Below, piece by piece: positions 21,454 to 51,925 of a stretch of 64,000 bases of DNA. The notes beneath the pieces were generated by a model that was given only the letters and a program-made list of their open reading frames with translations, did no database searches and was not told the origin of the DNA. Source of the DNA: Desulfobacula sp. (lineage in GTDB: Bacteria; Desulfobacterota; Desulfobacteria; Desulfobacterales; Desulfobacteraceae); assembly GCF_030145145.1 (NCBI RefSeq), contig NZ_JAQYWD010000012.1, forward strand, positions 1 through 64,000, in the 5' to 3' direction. Numbering within the stretch: the first letter of the stretch is position 1; every line of letters starts with the position of its first letter. The position numbers were made by a program, and so were the translations under genes.

Positions 21454-21810
21454 TGGTGGAGGCGGCGGGAGTTGAACCCGCGTCCGAAAACAATCAACCT
21501 AGGCTTCTACATACTTATCTCAAAATTTATATTCATTGAATTGTCTCCTTTGAGATGGATACAAAACAGTATAGTCTGAAAAGTTTAGCCTTTAAGGTTC
21601 AGAAACCCTTAAAAAGCGATCTTGCAAAGTCGACGCCCTGACCTGAAATCTGCAAGAAAAATTTCAGCAGGACGGAAGCTGCTCTACGCAGCTACAGCGT
21701 AATTATAATCATCTGCGATTATGTTTATGCTTTGCCAAGTTTACGAGCTGACAAAAGACTCGGTATGCTACCATGGGCCTCAGAATCTCCGTCGAAGCCA
21801 TTTCGCCCCC
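21454..21810 (-). ncRNA. ssrA: tmRNA
   Basis: 357-base transfer-messenger RNA that rescues stalled ribosomes. The 5' end GGGGGCGAAATGGCTTCGAC and the 3' end with CGGGTTCAACTCCCGCCGCC and an encoded CCA form the tRNA-Ala-like domain; GGGGGCG pairs with CGCCUCC in the acceptor stem. The tag frame at 21716-21684 encodes ADDYNYAVAA then TAG. One-piece form, not permuted. It has a strong promoter at 21838-21866. Its partner smpB lies just upstream on the same strand, and an integrase faces its 3' end. Confidence 0.95.
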
Positions 21811-45391: not shown

Positions 45392-46921
45392 ATGATCATC
45401 GTTATTGATTTCGGTTCACAATTTAACCAGTTGATTGCCAGAAGGGTTAGAGAAAACAACGTTTATTGCCAGGTAGAACCCTCAAATATTTCCGTTGACA
45501 AGATAAAGGCCCTCAATCCAAAAGGCATTATTCTTTCCGGAGGCCCTTCCAGCATATATGAAGAAAACAGCCCCCGTATGGACCGATCCCTTTTCGATCT
45601 TGGGATCCCCATCCTTGGGATCTGTTACGGGATGCATTACATGGTCCATACCCTGGGCGGGACGATCAAAAAAGCGGCCAAGCGGGAATATGGGTTTGCA
45701 AGCCTTGATATCAAGGAACCCGACCCTTTATTCAAAGATATGGACACCGGGTTTCAATGCTGGATGAGTCATGGGGATTCTGCCCTGGAATTGCCGGATA
45801 ATTTTGTGGTTACCGCTTCCACCAAAAATACGGCCATCGCTGCCATTGCAAATCATGAAAAAAAATTTTACGGGCTCCAGCTTCACCCTGAGGTTGAACA
45901 CTCAATAAACGGCGCATTGATGATCCGTCATTTTCTATTTGATGTCTGCCAGTGCCAGGAAAACTGGACGATGCAATCATTTTCTGATGGCGCCATTGCC
46001 CAGATTAAAGCAGCCGTTGGCGACAAAAAAGTTATTATGGGGCTTTCCGGCGGTGTGGATTCATCCGTTGCCGCGACCCTTATTCATAAAGCCATTGGCA
46101 AAAATCTATTTTGTATTTTTGTTGACAACGGGCTGTTGAGAAAAAACGAAAGAGAAACACTTGAAAAAAGCCTGATTGCCAACCTGGATTTAAATATCCG
46201 CTTTGTTGATGCAGCAGATAAATTTTTAACCGCATTAAAAGGTGTGACAGATCCTGAAAAAAAACGAAAAATTATCGGGACCCTTTTTATAGACGTGTTT
46301 GATGCTGAAGCAAAAAAAATAGATGGTGCCGAGTTCCTGGGACAGGGAACCTTGTACCCGGATATTATTGAATCCAAATCCGCCTTTGGGGGACCCACTG
46401 ACATCATCAAATCCCATCACAATGTCGGGGGGTTACCGGAAAAAATGAAGCTGAAACTCATCGAACCCCTGCAGCTTCTTTTTAAAGATGAAGTCAGGAA
46501 ACTCGGCGCCGAACTGGGGATTATTGAGGATCTGATATGGCGGCAGCCTTTTCCCGGGCCGGGACTGGCCATCAGAATCATGGGAGAGATCACCCCGGAA
46601 CGACTTGAAATTATAAGGGCGGCAGACGCTGTTTTGCTTGAAGAAATAAAAGCTGCCGGACTTTATAGAAAATTATGGCAGTCTTTTGCGGTTCTGCTGC
46701 CCATAAAAAGTGTGGGCGTGATGGGAGATAAAAGAACCTTTGCCAATTGTATTGCCATCCGGGCTGTCACCAGCAATGATGCCATGACGGCGGACTGGGC
46801 TAAATTACCCCATGACCTTTTAGGTCAGATTTCCAACAGGATTATCAATGAAGTCGACCATATTAATCGCGTCGTTTTTGATATCACTTCAAAGCCTCCC
46901 GGAACCATTGAATGGGAATAA
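45392..46921 (+). CDS. guaA: GMP synthase (glutamine-hydrolysing)
   Basis: 509 residues. Amidotransferase domain with Cys 78 in GICYGMHYM and HPEVEHS, ATP pyrophosphatase domain with the P-loop IMGLSGGVDSSVAATLI, and a C-terminal dimerisation domain ending in PPGTIEWE. Makes GMP from XMP. The GICYG loop reads GMHYM where GxQ is usual after Gly. It has AGGGAAAG before the ATG. Confidence 0.96.
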   Translation: MIIVIDFGSQFNQLIARRVRENNVYCQVEPSNISVDKIKALNPKGIILSGGPSSIYEENSPRMDRSLFDLGIPILGICYGMHYMVHTLGGTIKKAAKREYGFASLDIKEPDPLFKDMDTGFQCWMSHGDSALELPDNFVVTASTKNTAIAAIANHEKKFYGLQLHPEVEHSINGALMIRHFLFDVCQCQENWTMQSFSDGAIAQIKAAVGDKKVIMGLSGGVDSSVAATLIHKAIGKNLFCIFVDNGLLRKNERETLEKSLIANLDLNIRFVDAADKFLTALKGVTDPEKKRKIIGTLFIDVFDAEAKKIDGAEFLGQGTLYPDIIESKSAFGGPTDIIKSHHNVGGLPEKMKLKLIEPLQLLFKDEVRKLGAELGIIEDLIWRQPFPGPGLAIRIMGEITPERLEIIRAADAVLLEEIKAAGLYRKLWQSFAVLLPIKSVGVMGDKRTFANCIAIRAVTSNDAMTADWAKLPHDLLGQISNRIINEVDHINRVVFDITSKPPGTIEWE

Positions 46922-46934
46922 CTAACATATAAAA

Positions 46935-47924
46935 ATGGATTCAATGAATTTAAAAGATTTCAGACCTGATCATCCGAATTTCGATACGGGGAAAAAGGCC
47001 GGGAAAATGAGTGACAGAGACATCCCAGCATCAGCGTATCACGAAGAAATCAATACCCTGAAAATCGATAAGCTTTCCAACCGGGTCACCATTATTTCCA
47101 TCATTATTCCCTGCCTGATCGGTGCTATTTTTATCTTTGCCTACCTTGATATCACCGAACGTATGGTGGATGTGGATCAGACCAAACAAAGCCAGGTGGA
47201 AAGGGTTTCTCAACAAGTAGAAGAAAAATTAAATGCCCTGGATGTAAAAATAGCAAGGAACCGGTATGATCTTGATAATCAGCTGCCGGTATTGAACACG
47301 AAAACGACTTCACTTGAAGGCCAGATGGTAAAACTAACCCATTCAAAAGCAGATGCGAAATCTATTGCCGACCAGTTCGATAAACTTAGCAAGCAGGTTG
47401 CCAACAACGCGAATCAAGACAAAACAACCCTTCAGACCTTTGAAAGGATCAACAAAGAAACCCTTTCCACCATAAAAAAAAATCAAACCCTGTTTGATAC
47501 CACATCACAGCAGATAAAAAACGAGATCACCCTGTTTAAAGAAGAATTTGATGTCAGACTTTTGGAGCTTTCCCACTATGACGAGCAAATCGGAGCGCTT
47601 CAAAAAGAGTTAAGTCTTCTGGTGAAGAAATATAACCGGTTGGAACAGGAGACCCTCTCATCTGCCACACTTGATGAGCGGTTAACGCCATTAAAAACCG
47701 ATTTAGACCATCATATAAAGACGATTGATGCGCAGGTAGACGTCTTGAATCGAAAACTTACTGCCAATATATCCCGGCTTCAAAAAGATCTTGACCTGTT
47801 GATGAACACGTCTTCGCCCAAAACGCCACCCCAGAAAACACCCCCCCTTTTTAAACCAGAACCACAAATCAATATTGATTCATCTGATGCCGTTAAGATT
47901 GAACAAGAATCTCTGGACCAATAG
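46935..47924 (+). CDS. unknown membrane-anchored coiled-coil protein
   Basis: 329 residues. A polar cytoplasmic part of about 50 residues, one membrane helix (VTIISIIIPCLIGAIFIFAY), then about 230 residues of periplasmic coiled coil rich in Gln, Lys and Asp (QVERVSQQVEEKLNALDVKI, TFERINKETLSTIKKNQTLF, ELSLLVKKYNRLEQETL), and a Pro-rich end (PKTPPQKTPPLFKPEP). No enzymatic motif. It lies 13 bp after guaA and 20 bp before the SidJ-like gene, so it may share a transcript with both. Function unknown. Confidence 0.7.
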   Translation: MDSMNLKDFRPDHPNFDTGKKAGKMSDRDIPASAYHEEINTLKIDKLSNRVTIISIIIPCLIGAIFIFAYLDITERMVDVDQTKQSQVERVSQQVEEKLNALDVKIARNRYDLDNQLPVLNTKTTSLEGQMVKLTHSKADAKSIADQFDKLSKQVANNANQDKTTLQTFERINKETLSTIKKNQTLFDTTSQQIKNEITLFKEEFDVRLLELSHYDEQIGALQKELSLLVKKYNRLEQETLSSATLDERLTPLKTDLDHHIKTIDAQVDVLNRKLTANISRLQKDLDLLMNTSSPKTPPQKTPPLFKPEPQINIDSSDAVKIEQESLDQ

Positions 47925-47944
47925 AGGGTGAGTGCCGGGTTCTT

Positions 47945-49549
47945 TTGATATCATTTGCAGACAAACAAGAAGGTCGACTTCAGACGGAACATCAGCTGTT
48001 ACATCAAACCATTGGGTTTTCCGCAGCGTATCTGGCCGTTCAATATCTTTTTTCTCACATAAAAAAAACACCGGAATCCATCACCGAACAAACCGTCACA
48101 GCACTCTTGATGCTGATTCAATCCAACCGGTACGCTGCCAAACGACAAGCCTATTTCCTGTATAAAGAGACGGCCTGTGCCCTGATCCATCTGTCCTTTG
48201 ACAGGACACACCCTTTGGCCGGGTTTAGCATTTTTAAACTTCAGGAACTCTTACTCTCAAGTCACGGGAAAAAACATCGAGCGGTTTCAGAAGCGCTTGG
48301 ATCTTTGCCCTTAACCATCACCGGCCCGGATATCCAGGCCATAAACCTGAATGACCGGGTGGACGTATCATTTGATACCTTGTTGTGTCAGCTGGAGGAT
48401 CTGGATATCACCGCTTTTCACTGGCATGGCAGAACCCTCAGGGGCGAGATGCCCAATGGACACATCGCTTGTATTAAATTTGCCCGATCAAAAGAAAATG
48501 GGGCTGACCTCATCATGGAATCCCATTGGCTTCATTTTTTAAGGGACAATCCCCCCTGCCGGCAGTCGACATTTAAAATCCCTATTCCTGTCTGCATCAA
48601 CAATACGGCCTTGTTTAAGTTAACCCATCTGCCGAATGTCATCCGGGAAAACCCCCATATATCAAAAGAATATCTGGCCATTGTTTTTATCGCAGAAAAA
48701 GATTATTTCTTTTATCCCAATGCCCCGGATTTTTTTAAAGACCAACGCATGGCTGTGAAAGAAATATTCAGGCGAAATGCATGGCTTCTGGGAAAGTTAA
48801 CGTCCCAAGGGATTATCCATACCGCCCTTATTCCTTTATTTCATAACCGGGTCCAGCAATCCCGGCGTGATGATCACGGCGTCTACGTCTGGGAACAGGG
48901 CGGCAGGCTGGACAAATGGCTTGAATCCAGCCAGTTTCCGAATTTTGCAAAATCCGGTTTAAGGGATTTTGAACATTTGATAGCCATTAAAGATACCAAA
49001 AAACTACACCATTTTATTGGAGAACACATTTTAGGCTTTGTGCTGGTTGTGGGAAGTGTTTTTCGAAACAAAGCCCCGGAACGACTCGGATGGGATGAAA
49101 ACGGTCACCCGATTGATACCCGGAGCCTTTTTGACAGGTCCGTGTTTTCAGAACTGTTCCAGGATATTGTGCGTCTTTATTATCAAGGCATGACCGGTGT
49201 TCCCTTAAAGACCATCAACCAATTTTTTGATGACCGTTTGATCGACCGTCTCATTGAAACCATGGGGATGGACCATCACATGGAAGAAACCCTTCGGATC
49301 CGGGATCAAGACAACATGACGGAAACTGAGTTTCATGATTTTTTAATTTCCCGGGGATATGACACCTCCCTGCCGGCTCATATTAAAAAAGGCGACCAGG
49401 ATATCGTTTTAAATACCGGCCCTCATTTAGGCGGCTTTAACCAACCCATTTCAGTCCCGGAATTGATGGAATTTCTCTTTTGTCTCTCTTCCCTGTGCAT
49501 ATCTGACCGGTACCTCATGGAAAATGGGTTGAAAGCTTCTTCAAATTAG
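47945..49549 (+). CDS. kinase-fold protein resembling SidJ-type pseudokinases
   Basis: 534 residues, soluble, TTG start with a weak site. The N-terminal third is helical. Residues about 158-185 read FHWHGRTLRGEMPNGHIACI then KFAR: a strand-loop-strand and a Lys (178) placed like the VAIK lysine of protein kinases. Around 310-345 follow RRDDHGVYVWEQGGRLDKWL and NFAKSGLRDFEHL, where D341-F342-E343 resembles a DFG-like metal site. I recall this segment as the signature of proteins named SidJ-related pseudokinase in sulfate reducers; SidJ of Legionella is a calmodulin-activated glutamylase. No secretion signal. Substrate and activity unknown. Confidence 0.5.
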   Translation: MISFADKQEGRLQTEHQLLHQTIGFSAAYLAVQYLFSHIKKTPESITEQTVTALLMLIQSNRYAAKRQAYFLYKETACALIHLSFDRTHPLAGFSIFKLQELLLSSHGKKHRAVSEALGSLPLTITGPDIQAINLNDRVDVSFDTLLCQLEDLDITAFHWHGRTLRGEMPNGHIACIKFARSKENGADLIMESHWLHFLRDNPPCRQSTFKIPIPVCINNTALFKLTHLPNVIRENPHISKEYLAIVFIAEKDYFFYPNAPDFFKDQRMAVKEIFRRNAWLLGKLTSQGIIHTALIPLFHNRVQQSRRDDHGVYVWEQGGRLDKWLESSQFPNFAKSGLRDFEHLIAIKDTKKLHHFIGEHILGFVLVVGSVFRNKAPERLGWDENGHPIDTRSLFDRSVFSELFQDIVRLYYQGMTGVPLKTINQFFDDRLIDRLIETMGMDHHMEETLRIRDQDNMTETEFHDFLISRGYDTSLPAHIKKGDQDIVLNTGPHLGGFNQPISVPELMEFLFCLSSLCISDRYLMENGLKASSN

Positions 49550-49595
49550 GGTAGTATATTCCATTCTTTGGGGATACCATTAAAAAGGATTAGAA

Positions 49596-49763
49596 ATGTC
49601 TAAACAATACCCGGAATGCCCGCTCTATAATCACGCAACCTGCAGAGAATTGCATAACCCAAAGCTTTGTGCCATCATACGAGAGGACAAAATCTGTTTT
49701 AAAAAGCAACAAAAACCCAAAAAAGAGACGTCCAAACAAGATTCCACCGAGATCCCCTCGTAA
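49596..49763 (+). CDS. small cysteine-containing protein
   Basis: 55 residues with AAGGA nine bases before the ATG. The first half has four or five Cys in a tight pattern (CPLYNHATCRELHNPKLCAI, then ICFKKQQ), the second half is Lys-rich and probably disordered. The Cys spacing (C-x7-C-x8-C-x8-C) suggests a metal or iron-sulfur site. It follows the SidJ-like gene by 46 bp on the same strand and ends two bases before the convergent mltD-like gene. I do not know the family. Easily missed because of its size. Confidence 0.65.
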   Translation: MSKQYPECPLYNHATCRELHNPKLCAIIREDKICFKKQQKPKKETSKQDSTEIPS

Positions 49764-49765
49764 TC

Positions 49766-50881
49766 CTATTCAATCAACAGCCTGTCACCTGGATAAATTT
49801 TACCGTTTACAGAAAGATTATTTGATTTTAACAAAGAAAAAAGAGAGATCTGATATGCTTTGGCAATCCCCGTCAGATTTTCGCCACGTTTAACTGTGTG
49901 AAATTTTGTGTTAGCTGTTTTTTTCCAGTGTTTATAATATGCTGAAAACCGGTCGTTAAATCCTTTTGCGGTTCCTTTGGGTACCAGGATATGACGTTTC
50001 CCTTTTCCCAGGTAATACCCCCGCAATTCCGGGTTGTAATCTTTAATTGTTTTAAAGGGTAACCCGGCAACCTGGGCAATGAATGAGATGGGAAGTTCAG
50101 CACCGGATGTGAACGTGACGCGATCAAATGCAAAAACAGGGTATAGGTCTGATTTTTCCAAAAAGAATCCGTATGATGCGGGATTTTCAAGAATTAATTT
50201 GGCACAAATAAGTTTAAAGATATACCGTTGCGTTTCCAGCGGAAGATACAATGAAAAAAAATCATTGCTTTTTTGAAGTTCGATTTCACCTTTCAATCCA
50301 TATTCGCCCATATTATAAGCAGACAGCGCCAGCAGGTAGGATCCAAACTGGGTCTTTAACGCCTTTATATAGTCACAGGCCGCATGGGTTGATTTAAAAA
50401 TATTCCGTCGTTCATCCACCTGGGAATCAATCCTGAGGCCATGTCGTTTACCCGTGGACTTTAAAAACTGCCAATACCCCACAGCACCTTTGGCAGAACC
50501 GGCATGGGGCCTTAATGCGCTTTCAATGAGGGGAACATATTTCAAATCAAGGGGTAACCCATGGTGGTGTAAAATATCTTCCACATGGGGGAAATATTTT
50601 CCCGCCCGTTTCATCCAGAGAATCACCTGGGGTCGATCCCACACGGCCAGTAACATCTCTTTTTCAAGTCTTTCTTTTATATCCTGATGTTCCAGGGGAA
50701 TGTTAACGTTACAATATTGAATATTTGTTTTAAATTGAATACTTTCCATTAATGAAGGGAACGCCTGTTGGACGGGCTGAGACCGCAATGGCTCTGTGCC
50801 GGAACACAGAAAAGGGAAAACCGCCGCCCCCAGGATTAAAATAAAGCCAGCAATACAGGAAGTCTTAAATGTCATAGCCAT
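49766..50881 (-). CDS. MltD-like lytic murein transglycosylase
   Basis: 371 residues with a signal peptide (FKTSCIAGFILILGAAVFPF). SLT domain with catalytic Glu in LKYVPLIESALRPHAGSAKG followed by AVGYWQFLKSTGKRHGL and LALSAYNMGEYG, then one LysM at the C-terminus (FHTVKRGENLTGIAKAYQIS ... IYPGDRLLIE). E. coli MltD has two LysM and is a lipoprotein; this one has one LysM and a Cys (FLCSG) at a possible lipobox. A second ATG at codon 3 is possible. Confidence 0.88.
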   Translation of the reverse strand: MAMTFKTSCIAGFILILGAAVFPFLCSGTEPLRSQPVQQAFPSLMESIQFKTNIQYCNVNIPLEHQDIKERLEKEMLLAVWDRPQVILWMKRAGKYFPHVEDILHHHGLPLDLKYVPLIESALRPHAGSAKGAVGYWQFLKSTGKRHGLRIDSQVDERRNIFKSTHAACDYIKALKTQFGSYLLALSAYNMGEYGLKGEIELQKSNDFFSLYLPLETQRYIFKLICAKLILENPASYGFFLEKSDLYPVFAFDRVTFTSGAELPISFIAQVAGLPFKTIKDYNPELRGYYLGKGKRHILVPKGTAKGFNDRFSAYYKHWKKTANTKFHTVKRGENLTGIAKAYQISLFSLLKSNNLSVNGKIYPGDRLLIE

Positions 50882-51163: not shown

Positions 51164-51925
51164 ATGATCTCCTTTTTAAAAGTTCTTATTCGACAGGCAG
51201 GGGCGATCTGCATGAAAGAGCAACCGCTTTTAACGCTTTCAGATGTGGCATTCAAAAACCAAAAAGATCTGGTCACCCTTACCGATAAAAAAGTTGAAAA
51301 TTTTATCGTTCACCAGATTAGAACCGCATATCCCTCCCATGATATTTTGGGAGAGGAAACAGGACGGACCCATTTTTCGTCAGATTACCTCTGGATAATT
51401 GATCCCATAGACGGAACCACTTCCTTTTTCCATCAACAGCCGTTTTATGCCGTCAGTATCGCTGTGCAGCACCAGGGTCAAACGATCTGTGGTGCAGTTT
51501 ATGTCCCCTGTATGGATGAGCTGTTCTATGCGGATAAAGGCGGGGGGGCTTTTTTAAACGATGAGCCAATTTGTGTTTCAAAAACCGACCAGCTGATCAA
51601 TGCTGTCATGGCAACGGGATTTGCATGTTTGAGAGCAAACCTTGAAAAAAACAATCTACCCTATTTCAACCGGATTGTTCCCCAGTTAAGAGACATTCGA
51701 CGGTATGGTTCAGCCGCCATTGACCTTTGCTATGTGGCATGCGGCAGGCTTGACGGTTTTTGGGAAATGAATTTAAATGTGTATGATATTGCCGCAGGGG
51801 TATTTATCGTTGAACAGGCCGGTGGAAGCGTCTGTGATTTCAAAGGAGCATTGAATTTCCCTGAACAGGGAATTATGGCAACCCCTTTGTCCCTTCAAAA
51901 GAAACTACTTGAAAATTTTGGATAA
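51164..51925 (+). CDS. inositol monophosphatase family protein
   Basis: 253 residues. The metal-binding motifs are complete: ILGEETG, WIIDPIDGTTSFFHQQPFYA and the C-terminal YDIAAGVFIVEQAGG. The family includes inositol-1-phosphatase/SuhB, CysQ (PAP phosphatase) and fructose-bisphosphatases, and I cannot tell them apart safely here; the FFHQ after DPIDGTTS is close to the SuhB-type NFxH. GGTGAGG before the ATG. Confidence 0.88.
   Translation: MISFLKVLIRQAGAICMKEQPLLTLSDVAFKNQKDLVTLTDKKVENFIVHQIRTAYPSHDILGEETGRTHFSSDYLWIIDPIDGTTSFFHQQPFYAVSIAVQHQGQTICGAVYVPCMDELFYADKGGGAFLNDEPICVSKTDQLINAVMATGFACLRANLEKNNLPYFNRIVPQLRDIRRYGSAAIDLCYVACGRLDGFWEMNLNVYDIAAGVFIVEQAGGSVCDFKGALNFPEQGIMATPLSLQKKLLENFG

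What the first reader, a model, noticed from the sequence alone, without database searches (positions are those of the whole stretch)
46935..49763. SidJ-like kinase-fold protein with a coiled-coil membrane partner and a small Cys protein
The 534-residue protein has a VAIK-like Lys 178 and a DFE at 341-343 within a kinase-like layout and resembles proteins labelled SidJ-related. In Legionella this fold performs glutamylation, an unexpected chemistry; a free-living bacterium with the same fold and no secretion signal suggests a native, uncharacterised modification system. The adjacent coiled-coil membrane protein and 55-residue Cys protein could be its anchor and partner or target.
Basis: partly seen in the sequence, partly recalled or inferred. 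Interest (0 to 1): 0.75.

Follow-up and report, generated by a model that had tools for sequence, protein, structure and literature searches.

The report
Native SidJ-type glutamylase in sulfate reducers
A sulfate-reducing bacterium carries on its own chromosome a protein built like the Legionella enzyme SidJ, with almost every residue that SidJ uses to attach glutamate to proteins, which suggests that this odd chemistry is native to bacteria and still waiting to be tested; the two neighbouring genes do not look like its partners.

Summary
The 534-residue protein (47945-49549 +) belongs to NCBIfam NF033874, 'SidJ-related pseudokinase' (637 bits, cut-off 300). Its model (pLDDT 87.7) finds SidJ in the PDB: all 15 matches with E<=0.001. 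Nine residues of SidJ's two nucleotide pockets fall on identical residues here; nine are invariant in 39 of 39 relatives, eight in a second set of 76, the ninth in 75 of 76. H492, R500 and R522 belong to the second, glutamylating pocket, so the chemistry guess becomes a specific prediction. SidJ's calmodulin motif is absent (0 of 105). Activity is not shown.

The proposed partners are not supported. Both neighbours occur in genomes without the enzyme, where the enzyme gene has decayed or gone from between them; the Cys gene has a promoter-like site of its own. Outside one clade the coiled-coil gene is not upstream.

The family is named in NCBIfam, and homologues with the key motifs were noted in 2019 (PMC6858067); I saw no assay of one. 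New member of a known, uncharacterised kind.

The parts
47945..49549 (+). SidJ-related kinase-fold protein, 534 aa, TTG start: helical N-terminal domain (aa 4-119), kinase-like core (from about aa 138)
   Evidence: NF033874 637 bits; model pLDDT 87.7; Foldseek SidJ E 9.7e-13
48431..48433 (+). codon of R163, at the place of SidJ R352 (Gly-rich loop, PPi contact)
   Evidence: start of the phmmer match sets residue 162 on SidJ chain position 351; 39 of 39 and 75 of 76
48476..48478 (+). codon of K178, at the place of SidJ K367 (beta-3 Lys)
   Evidence: 39 of 39 and 76 of 76; 15 after R163 as in SidJ
48518..48520 (+). codon of E192, at the place of SidJ E381 (alpha-C Glu)
   Evidence: 39 of 39 and 76 of 76; 14 after K178 as in SidJ
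48842..48868 (+). codons of H300 to R308: loop of the second (migrated) nucleotide pocket, H300 = SidJ H492, R308 = SidJ R500
   Evidence: H300 and R308 invariant; lies without a gap on the SidJ bridging peptide 480-503 as printed in PMC8548325
48884..48886 (+). codon of Y314, at the place of SidJ Y506 (wall of the second pocket)
   Evidence: 39 of 39 and 76 of 76; spacing as in SidJ
48905..48907 (+). codon of R321, at the place of SidJ R522 (free-glutamate contact)
   Evidence: 39 of 39 and 76 of 76; 12 before N333 as R522 is before N534
48941..48943 (+). codon of N333, at the place of SidJ N534 (metal ligand)
   Evidence: 39 of 39 and 76 of 76
   Evidence: 39 of 39 and 76 of 76
49529..49557 (+). 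sigma-70-like site (TTGAAA, 17 nt, TAGTAT) spanning the last codons and stop of the SidJ-like gene; probably drives the Cys gene
   Evidence: number of such sites in this region not above shuffles; a like site in 15 of 23 loci, background 1 of 556
46935..47924 (+). coiled-coil membrane protein, 329 aa; neighbour, not shown to be a partner
   Evidence: 36 of 40 genomes have a homologue, with or without the SidJ-like gene
49596..49763 (+). 55-aa protein with four Cys; neighbour, not shown to be a partner
   Evidence: 31 of 40 genomes have a homologue, with or without the SidJ-like gene

Best explanation
The protein is a chromosomal, calmodulin-independent enzyme of the SidJ kind. Step 1 (inferred from conserved R163, K178, E192, N333, D341): the kinase-like cleft binds ATP and metal and transfers AMP to a carboxylate, most likely a Glu side chain of a bacterial protein. 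Step 2 (inferred from conserved H300, R308, Y314, R321): the acyl-AMP moves into the second pocket, where free L-glutamate held by R308 and R321 attacks it, leaving a glutamyl isopeptide and AMP. The helical, HEAT-like N-terminal domain would hold the substrate. Shown here: predicted fold, residue conservation, distribution, and loss in relatives. Inferred: activity, donor, substrate. Probability that it ligates an amino acid through an acyl-adenylate: about 0.65; that the donor is glutamate: about 0.55. The target is unknown and is probably not one of the two neighbours.
For: NF033874 637 bits; the SidJ effector model NF033873 also rings below its cut-off (E 1.3e-4 for the window protein; 51 of 76 sequences at E<=0.1, best 2.7e-9). 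Profile of 39 sequences against PDB sequences: SidJ 5.8e-18, next molecule 0.03. Foldseek: 15 SidJ chains at 9.7e-13 to 4.8e-10, next fold 7.6e-3. All nine mapped SidJ residues are identical here; 9 of 9 invariant in A1 (52 invariant columns of 534; hypergeometric 4e-10) and 8 of 9 in A2 (54 columns; 6e-8). Six of eight intervals equal SidJ's, and the other two (3 and 9 shorter) account for the 12-residue difference in match length. Published mutants: K367A, D542A and H492A abolish and N534A severely impairs glutamylation; D545A, the metal ligand not kept here (H344), has little or no effect (PMC6858067, passages). R500 and R522 coordinate free glutamate (PMC8548325 citing Osinski et al., passages). 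The only segment of three or more residues under pLDDT 50 (301-303; block mean 52 for 301-310) is the counterpart of SidJ loop 492-501, which is disordered after catalysis.
Against: No activity was tested. Identity to SidJ is 14-15% in the structural alignments, TMq 0.48-0.56, rmsd over 12 A, so domain arrangement differs. SidJ needs calmodulin; IQxxxRxxRK is in 0 of 105 relatives, so how this enzyme is switched on is open. SidJ E565, a second-pocket residue, has no clear counterpart (positions 360 and 364 are E in 8 and 0 of 39). E381A has little or no effect and R352A and Y506A only a slight one in SidJ, so three of the nine residues say little about activity. The loop that would form the second pocket is the least certain part of the model, and no coordinates were available to measure the pocket. 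H292 sits where a kinase has the His of HRD (motif recalled), so phosphotransfer or Ser/Thr/Tyr AMPylation is not excluded. The gene is missing from many close relatives, so it is dispensable.
Confidence: 0.62

Rival explanations
1. It is a plain AMPylase (SelO-like): the AMP adduct is the end product and no amino acid is added.
For: SidJ itself auto-AMPylates (PMC6858067, PMC8548325, passages); the first-step residues are kept.
Against: The counterparts of the glutamate-binding arginines (R308, R321) and of H492 (H300) are invariant, which a pure AMPylase would not need. The genome has a separate SelO (413 bits, cut-off 22.8). SidJ, and no SelO, is in the 50 best folds listed.
Confidence: 0.17
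2. It is an acyl-adenylate amide ligase for a different donor or a small-molecule acceptor, rather than a protein glutamylase.
For: No neighbour recurs across clades that could be a substrate; patchy spread (29 of 395 genomes).
Against: Both arginines that hold free glutamate in SidJ are kept; a helical N-terminal domain and, in two distant relatives, a long repeat array suggest protein partners.
Confidence: 0.13
3. It is a catalytically dead scaffold or an ordinary kinase.
For: Called a pseudokinase in NCBIfam; no activity known; absent or broken in many relatives.
Against: Residues of both pockets are invariant in relatives at 35-71% identity; the sequence has H292-T-A where kinases have HRD (motif recalled), so the kinase's catalytic Asp is missing.
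Confidence: 0.08
4. One reading: membrane anchor, enzyme and Cys target.
For: The coiled-coil gene is directly upstream in 17 of 105 relatives, all 17 in one 22-row clade, with 20 nt between the two genes here. The clade's gene order is old enough to span several genera.
Against: Homologues of both neighbours occur in genomes without the enzyme, where it has decayed or gone from between them. Outside the clade the enzyme lies elsewhere. The Cys gene has a promoter-like site of its own.
Confidence: 0.06

Closest known systems
NCBIfam NF033874 'SidJ-related pseudokinase' (hypothetical equivalog)
   Same: Nearly full-length match, residues 25-524 on 3-507 of 507, 637 bits; 76 of 76 aligned sequences match
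   Different: Nothing; this is a member. The library gives the family a name but no function.
SidJ, calmodulin-dependent glutamylase of Legionella (NF033873; PDB 6oqq, 7mir and others)
   Same: Kinase-like core, key residues of both nucleotide pockets, spacing
   Different: 534 against 873 aa; no calmodulin-binding IQ motif; HEAT-like N-terminus; H in place of D545; 20.5 bits against NF033873's cut-off of 400; no SidE phosphodiesterase domain found in the genome (where all control genomes also stayed silent, so absence is not shown)
SelO (PF02696), kinase-fold AMPylase
   Same: Atypical kinase fold that moves AMP (PMC8548325 and PMC12599244, passages)
   Different: The window protein does not match PF02696; the genome has a separate SelO on another contig
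Aminoglycoside phosphotransferases and protein kinases
   Same: Next-best folds; 4 of 76 sequences touch Pfam APH at E<=0.1, best 3.2e-4
   Different: At least seven orders of magnitude weaker than SidJ in Foldseek E-value; the window protein itself has no Pfam match

Membership tests
NF033874 SidJ-related pseudokinase | Whole-protein score over the curated cut-off of 300 bits | tested here: met
   637.5 bits
SidJ glutamylase (as a fold and catalytic type) | Kinase-like fold closest to SidJ | tested here: met
   All 15 PDB matches with E<=0.001 are SidJ chains, on a predicted model
SidJ glutamylase (as a fold and catalytic type) | First-pocket residues K367, N534, D542 (with R352, E381) | tested here: met
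   K178, N333, D341, R163, E192; mutants in PMC6858067. D545 is not kept (H344).
SidJ glutamylase (as a fold and catalytic type) | Second-pocket residues H492, R500, Y506, R522 | tested here: met
   H300, R308, Y314, R321, invariant in 39 of 39 and 76 of 76; placed by spacing and by the printed peptide in PMC8548325. E565 has no clear counterpart; pocket geometry not measured.
SidJ_poly_Glu effector subfamily NF033873 | Score over 400 bits | tested here: not met
   20.5 bits
SidJ_poly_Glu effector subfamily NF033873 | Calmodulin-binding C-terminal IQ motif | tested here: not met
   IQxxxRxxRK in 0 of 105 relatives; the shorter IQxxxR occurs in 14 of 105, not at one C-terminal place
SidJ_poly_Glu effector subfamily NF033873 | Translocation by a Dot/Icm type IVB system | tested here: inconclusive
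   DotB model: nine matches in the genome, none over the cut-off; 13 of 14 control genomes also ring below it; one component tested
Protein glutamylase | ATP-dependent addition of glutamate to a protein | not testable with these tools
   Needs the bench
SelO | PF02696 match | tested here: not met
   No Pfam match of the window protein at E<=10; the genome's one SelO lies elsewhere

The most novel reading that the evidence does not exclude
A family of chromosomal HEAT-domain glutamylases, found in 14 families of the window's phylum (the 29 of 395 genomes with a match), carries out SidJ chemistry on the cell's own proteins without calmodulin; SidJ would then be a late, host-regulated offshoot of a native bacterial protein-modification enzyme. 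Proteins with a long helical-repeat array (L094, L095), about equally near to NF033874 and to SidJ (56 and 48 bits for L095), would be a third branch of the same enzyme class.
Probability: 0.5. Interest if true: 0.78.

Novelty: new member of a known kind. Interest (0 to 1): 0.55.

Why it matters
The kinase-fold glutamylases with known chemistry (SidJ and its paralogue SdjA; PMC12599244, passage) are injected effectors, and SidJ is switched on by a host protein. A free-living relative that keeps both pockets would show that the chemistry is native to bacteria, would offer an enzyme that works without calmodulin, and would open the search for a bacterial protein-glutamylation system separate from RimK (known to me from a search listing and recall). 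The residue map makes this directly testable with one purified protein and labelled glutamate.

Tried and rejected
Partner hypothesis: tested by homologue searches in 40 genomes for each neighbour, by gene order in 107 non-redundant loci of 119 and by a quick tree of 105 of these (those of at least 480 aa); not supported. Mobile-element hypothesis: no match among 72,556 plasmid or 50,697 phage records at E<=1e-5, and none in the viral contigs with a single-sequence query that reaches close relatives only. Defence-system hypothesis: no PADLOC match for the enzyme or the Cys protein at E<=0.1; the coiled-coil protein gives six weak matches, best 0.0017, of the kind coiled coils give. First guess that H292 is the counterpart of SidJ H492: dropped, because H300 gives equal spacing to R500 and Y506 and matches the printed SidJ peptide. 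A recurrent inositol-monophosphatase neighbour (upstream in L066, L166, L174, downstream in the window's clade) was judged too weak; the three lie in one small clade. Genome size: same-genus genomes at least 90% complete with an intact gene are larger, 6 against 12, one-sided p 0.0013; 6 against 10 after dropping G013 and G023, whose contigs end at the place, two-sided p 0.0047. The sizes are rounded, copied by hand, and the genomes are not independent, so I do not lean on it. The neighbour table rests on a crude longest-ORF gene caller; in L061 (G002) it missed the coiled-coil gene that one search finds upstream. No species tree was built, so the number of losses is not counted.

Literature: searches (listings; one search listed 20 of 55). 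In the listings and passages that I saw, no paper reports an assay of a non-Legionella SidJ relative. PMC6858067, PMC8548325, PMC12599244 and PMC9758233 were seen as passages only; PMC8571041, PMC6767918 and PMC6855250 are not held, so their content is known to me only through citations or recall.
Full report
What is there. Three same-strand ORFs lie between guaA (45392-46921) and a LysM lytic transglycosylase gene on the other strand (49766-50881): a 329-aa coiled-coil membrane protein, a 534-aa protein with a TTG start, and a 55-aa protein with four Cys. The window is part of a genome of 5.66 Mb in 89 contigs, G000; the nearest named relatives are Desulfobacula and other Desulfobacteraceae.

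Family. The 534-aa protein has no Pfam match but matches NCBIfam NF033874, 'SidJ-related pseudokinase', with 637.5 bits (cut-off 300), and weakly the SidJ effector model NF033873 (20.5 bits, cut-off 400). phmmer against the PDB finds SidJ (E 0.0027-0.018; residues 162-348 on 351-549 of the 873-residue chain). A profile of 39 sequences finds it at 5.8e-18; the next molecule, PP2A scaffold (HEAT repeats), comes at 0.03 on profile positions 23-122. The model (76 sequences, pLDDT 87.7, pTM 0.89) has six helices within 4-119, then a kinase-like N-lobe with K178 in strand 174-179 and E192 in helix 183-201. Foldseek against the PDB: the 15 matches with E at most 0.001 are all SidJ, 9.7e-13 to 4.8e-10; the next are aminoglycoside phosphotransferases and protein kinases from 7.6e-3. 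The SidJ alignments have TMq 0.48-0.56 and rmsd over 12 A, so the domains are placed differently.

Active-site residues. If the 873-residue chain is numbered as SidJ itself (assumed from its length), the ends of the phmmer match put R163 on SidJ R352 and D341 on D542. Spacing then gives K178=K367, E192=E381, R321=R522, N333=N534. H300=H492, R308=R500 and Y314=Y506 follow from equal spacing and from the SidJ peptide 480-503 printed in PMC8548325, which lies on window residues 288-311 without a gap. Six of eight intervals equal SidJ's; the other two (3 and 9 shorter) add up to the 12-residue difference in match length. All nine are the same amino acid as in SidJ. They are invariant in 39 of 39 aligned sequences (A1: the window and 38 loci; the two distant loci L094 and L095 were left out). 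In A2 (the window and 75 of 80 loci; five dropped for a stop or frame problem in the cut) eight are invariant and R163 is kept in 75 of 76. Against 52 invariant columns of 534 in A1, nine of nine has a hypergeometric probability of 4e-10; eight of nine in A2 6e-8. A1 and A2 share members. Not kept: D545 (H344 here, invariant), whose mutation has little or no effect in SidJ (PMC6858067, passage); E565 of the second pocket (variable here); the IQ motif (0 of 105). Of the nine, E381A has little or no effect and R352A and Y506A a slight one in SidJ, so the weight lies on K367, H492, R500, R522, N534 and D542.

Mechanism. In SidJ, K367A, D542A and H492A abolish and N534A severely impairs glutamylation (PMC6858067, passages). 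The cryo-EM work places the adenylylated glutamate in the second pocket with R500 on the alpha-phosphate, and cites R500 and R522 as the residues that hold free glutamate (PMC8548325, passages). The same residues here predict AMP transfer to a carboxylate followed by attack of glutamate. The least certain part of the model (301-310) is the counterpart of the SidJ loop 492-501 that becomes disordered after a cycle. This fits a mobile loop, but it also means that the second pocket is not shown by the model. A SelO AMPylase is present separately in the genome.

Distribution. 22 of 58 near relatives, the own genome included, have a match, fragments included. Of 395 genomes drawn evenly from the phylum 29 have one (27 over the cut-off), in 14 families, and 0 of 14 control genomes do. 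In the genome collection 203 of 226 pattern-matched stretches encode relatives; the best 80 were kept. No copy was found among plasmids, phages or, with a query for close relatives, viral contigs. Two genomes of another family of the phylum (G147, G176) carry longer proteins (1139 aa in L095; 916 aa in the L094 frame) with a helical-repeat array (Pfam HEAT-type matches in L095 below their cut-offs) and a distant core that, in L095, matches NF033874 (56 bits) and SidJ (48 bits) about equally.

Neighbours. The coiled-coil protein has homologues in 36 of 40 genomes tested and the Cys protein in 31 of 40, with or without the enzyme. In the five order-level genomes tested that have the enzyme (G036, G038, G042, G050, G057) the coiled-coil homologue is on another contig in 5 of 5, and the Cys homologue in 4 of 4 that have it; these are draft genomes. 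Among 105 relatives in the tree, 17 have the coiled-coil gene directly upstream, 76 do not and 12 begin at a contig edge. All 17 fall in one 22-row clade (support 100). The other five of that clade are L061, where the gene caller missed it, and four Desulfotignum rows (three without it, one at an edge); the tree needs three changes of the label. So the arrangement looks like one old gain with later change. Elsewhere only clade-specific sets recur, such as seven loci with a PilT-like, a zinc-ribbon and a sugar-transporter gene (names by eye). A same-strand ORF lies within 100 nt upstream in 50 of 94 loci and downstream in 31 of 104 (crude gene calls).

Loss in place. I compared the stretch between the coiled-coil and Cys genes in 14 genomes of the family without an intact enzyme gene. 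G005 holds a broken copy with stops. G006, G007 and G025 keep about the last 40 codons. By DNA comparison G004, G008, G010, G011, G014, G021, G022 and G024 keep a match over about 50-130 bases, of which roughly the last ten codons (more in G008) are coding and the rest is the leader of the Cys gene; for these eight the match alone could also be a conserved promoter. G001 matches only weakly (E 0.019), and G026 has one short match elsewhere in the gene (E 0.064). The kept piece includes a TTGAAA / 16-18 nt / TATAAT-like site 66-83 bases before the Cys gene: 15 of 23 loci match a loose pattern (5 of 9 with an intact gene, 10 of 14 without), against 1 of 556 stretches of the window, which may be this very site. 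In the window region alone the number of promoter-like sites is not above shuffles. The simplest reading is that the Cys gene has its own promoter inside the end of the enzyme gene, which would explain why that end is kept, and that the enzyme is dispensable.

What is known. Sulpizio et al. 2019 (PMC6858067, discussion passage) already mention SidJ homologues in Elusimicrobia, Desulfovibrio hydrothermalis and Waddlia chondrophila, with the key motifs, and call for tests. NF033874 names the family. I saw no assay of any such homologue (listings; most subscription papers are not held).

Check against the calls. In this version I corrected the wording on losses (no count), on the scars, on the limits of the viral search, on the clade and on the weight of single residues.

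Noticed in passing
L095:5178-8597 (+), L094:41-2791 (-): 1139-aa (and 916-aa) proteins with a long array of helical repeats of about 40 residues fused to a SidJ-like core; the profile alignment keeps K, E, LFHN, RR, GRL, PN and D; L095 is about equally distant from NF033874 and SidJ.
   Followed up: partly
window 49529-49595: Promoter-like site and leader of the Cys gene overlap the last codons of the SidJ-like gene and are still present in relatives without the gene.
   Followed up: yes
window 49596-49763: The 55-aa four-Cys protein is better conserved (83-89% identity in most of the genus; 50-58% in four other families of the order) than either neighbour; function unknown.
   Followed up: partly
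L066, L166, L174 upstream of the gene; window 51164-51925: An inositol-monophosphatase-family gene sits directly upstream of the SidJ-like gene in another clade and just downstream in the window's clade; possibly chance.
   Followed up: no
G000:C89:36590-37975: The same genome carries a SelO, so two atypical kinase-fold proteins that may move AMP coexist.
   Followed up: no
window 21454-21810 (-): tmRNA gene with tag ADDYNYAVAA.
   Followed up: no
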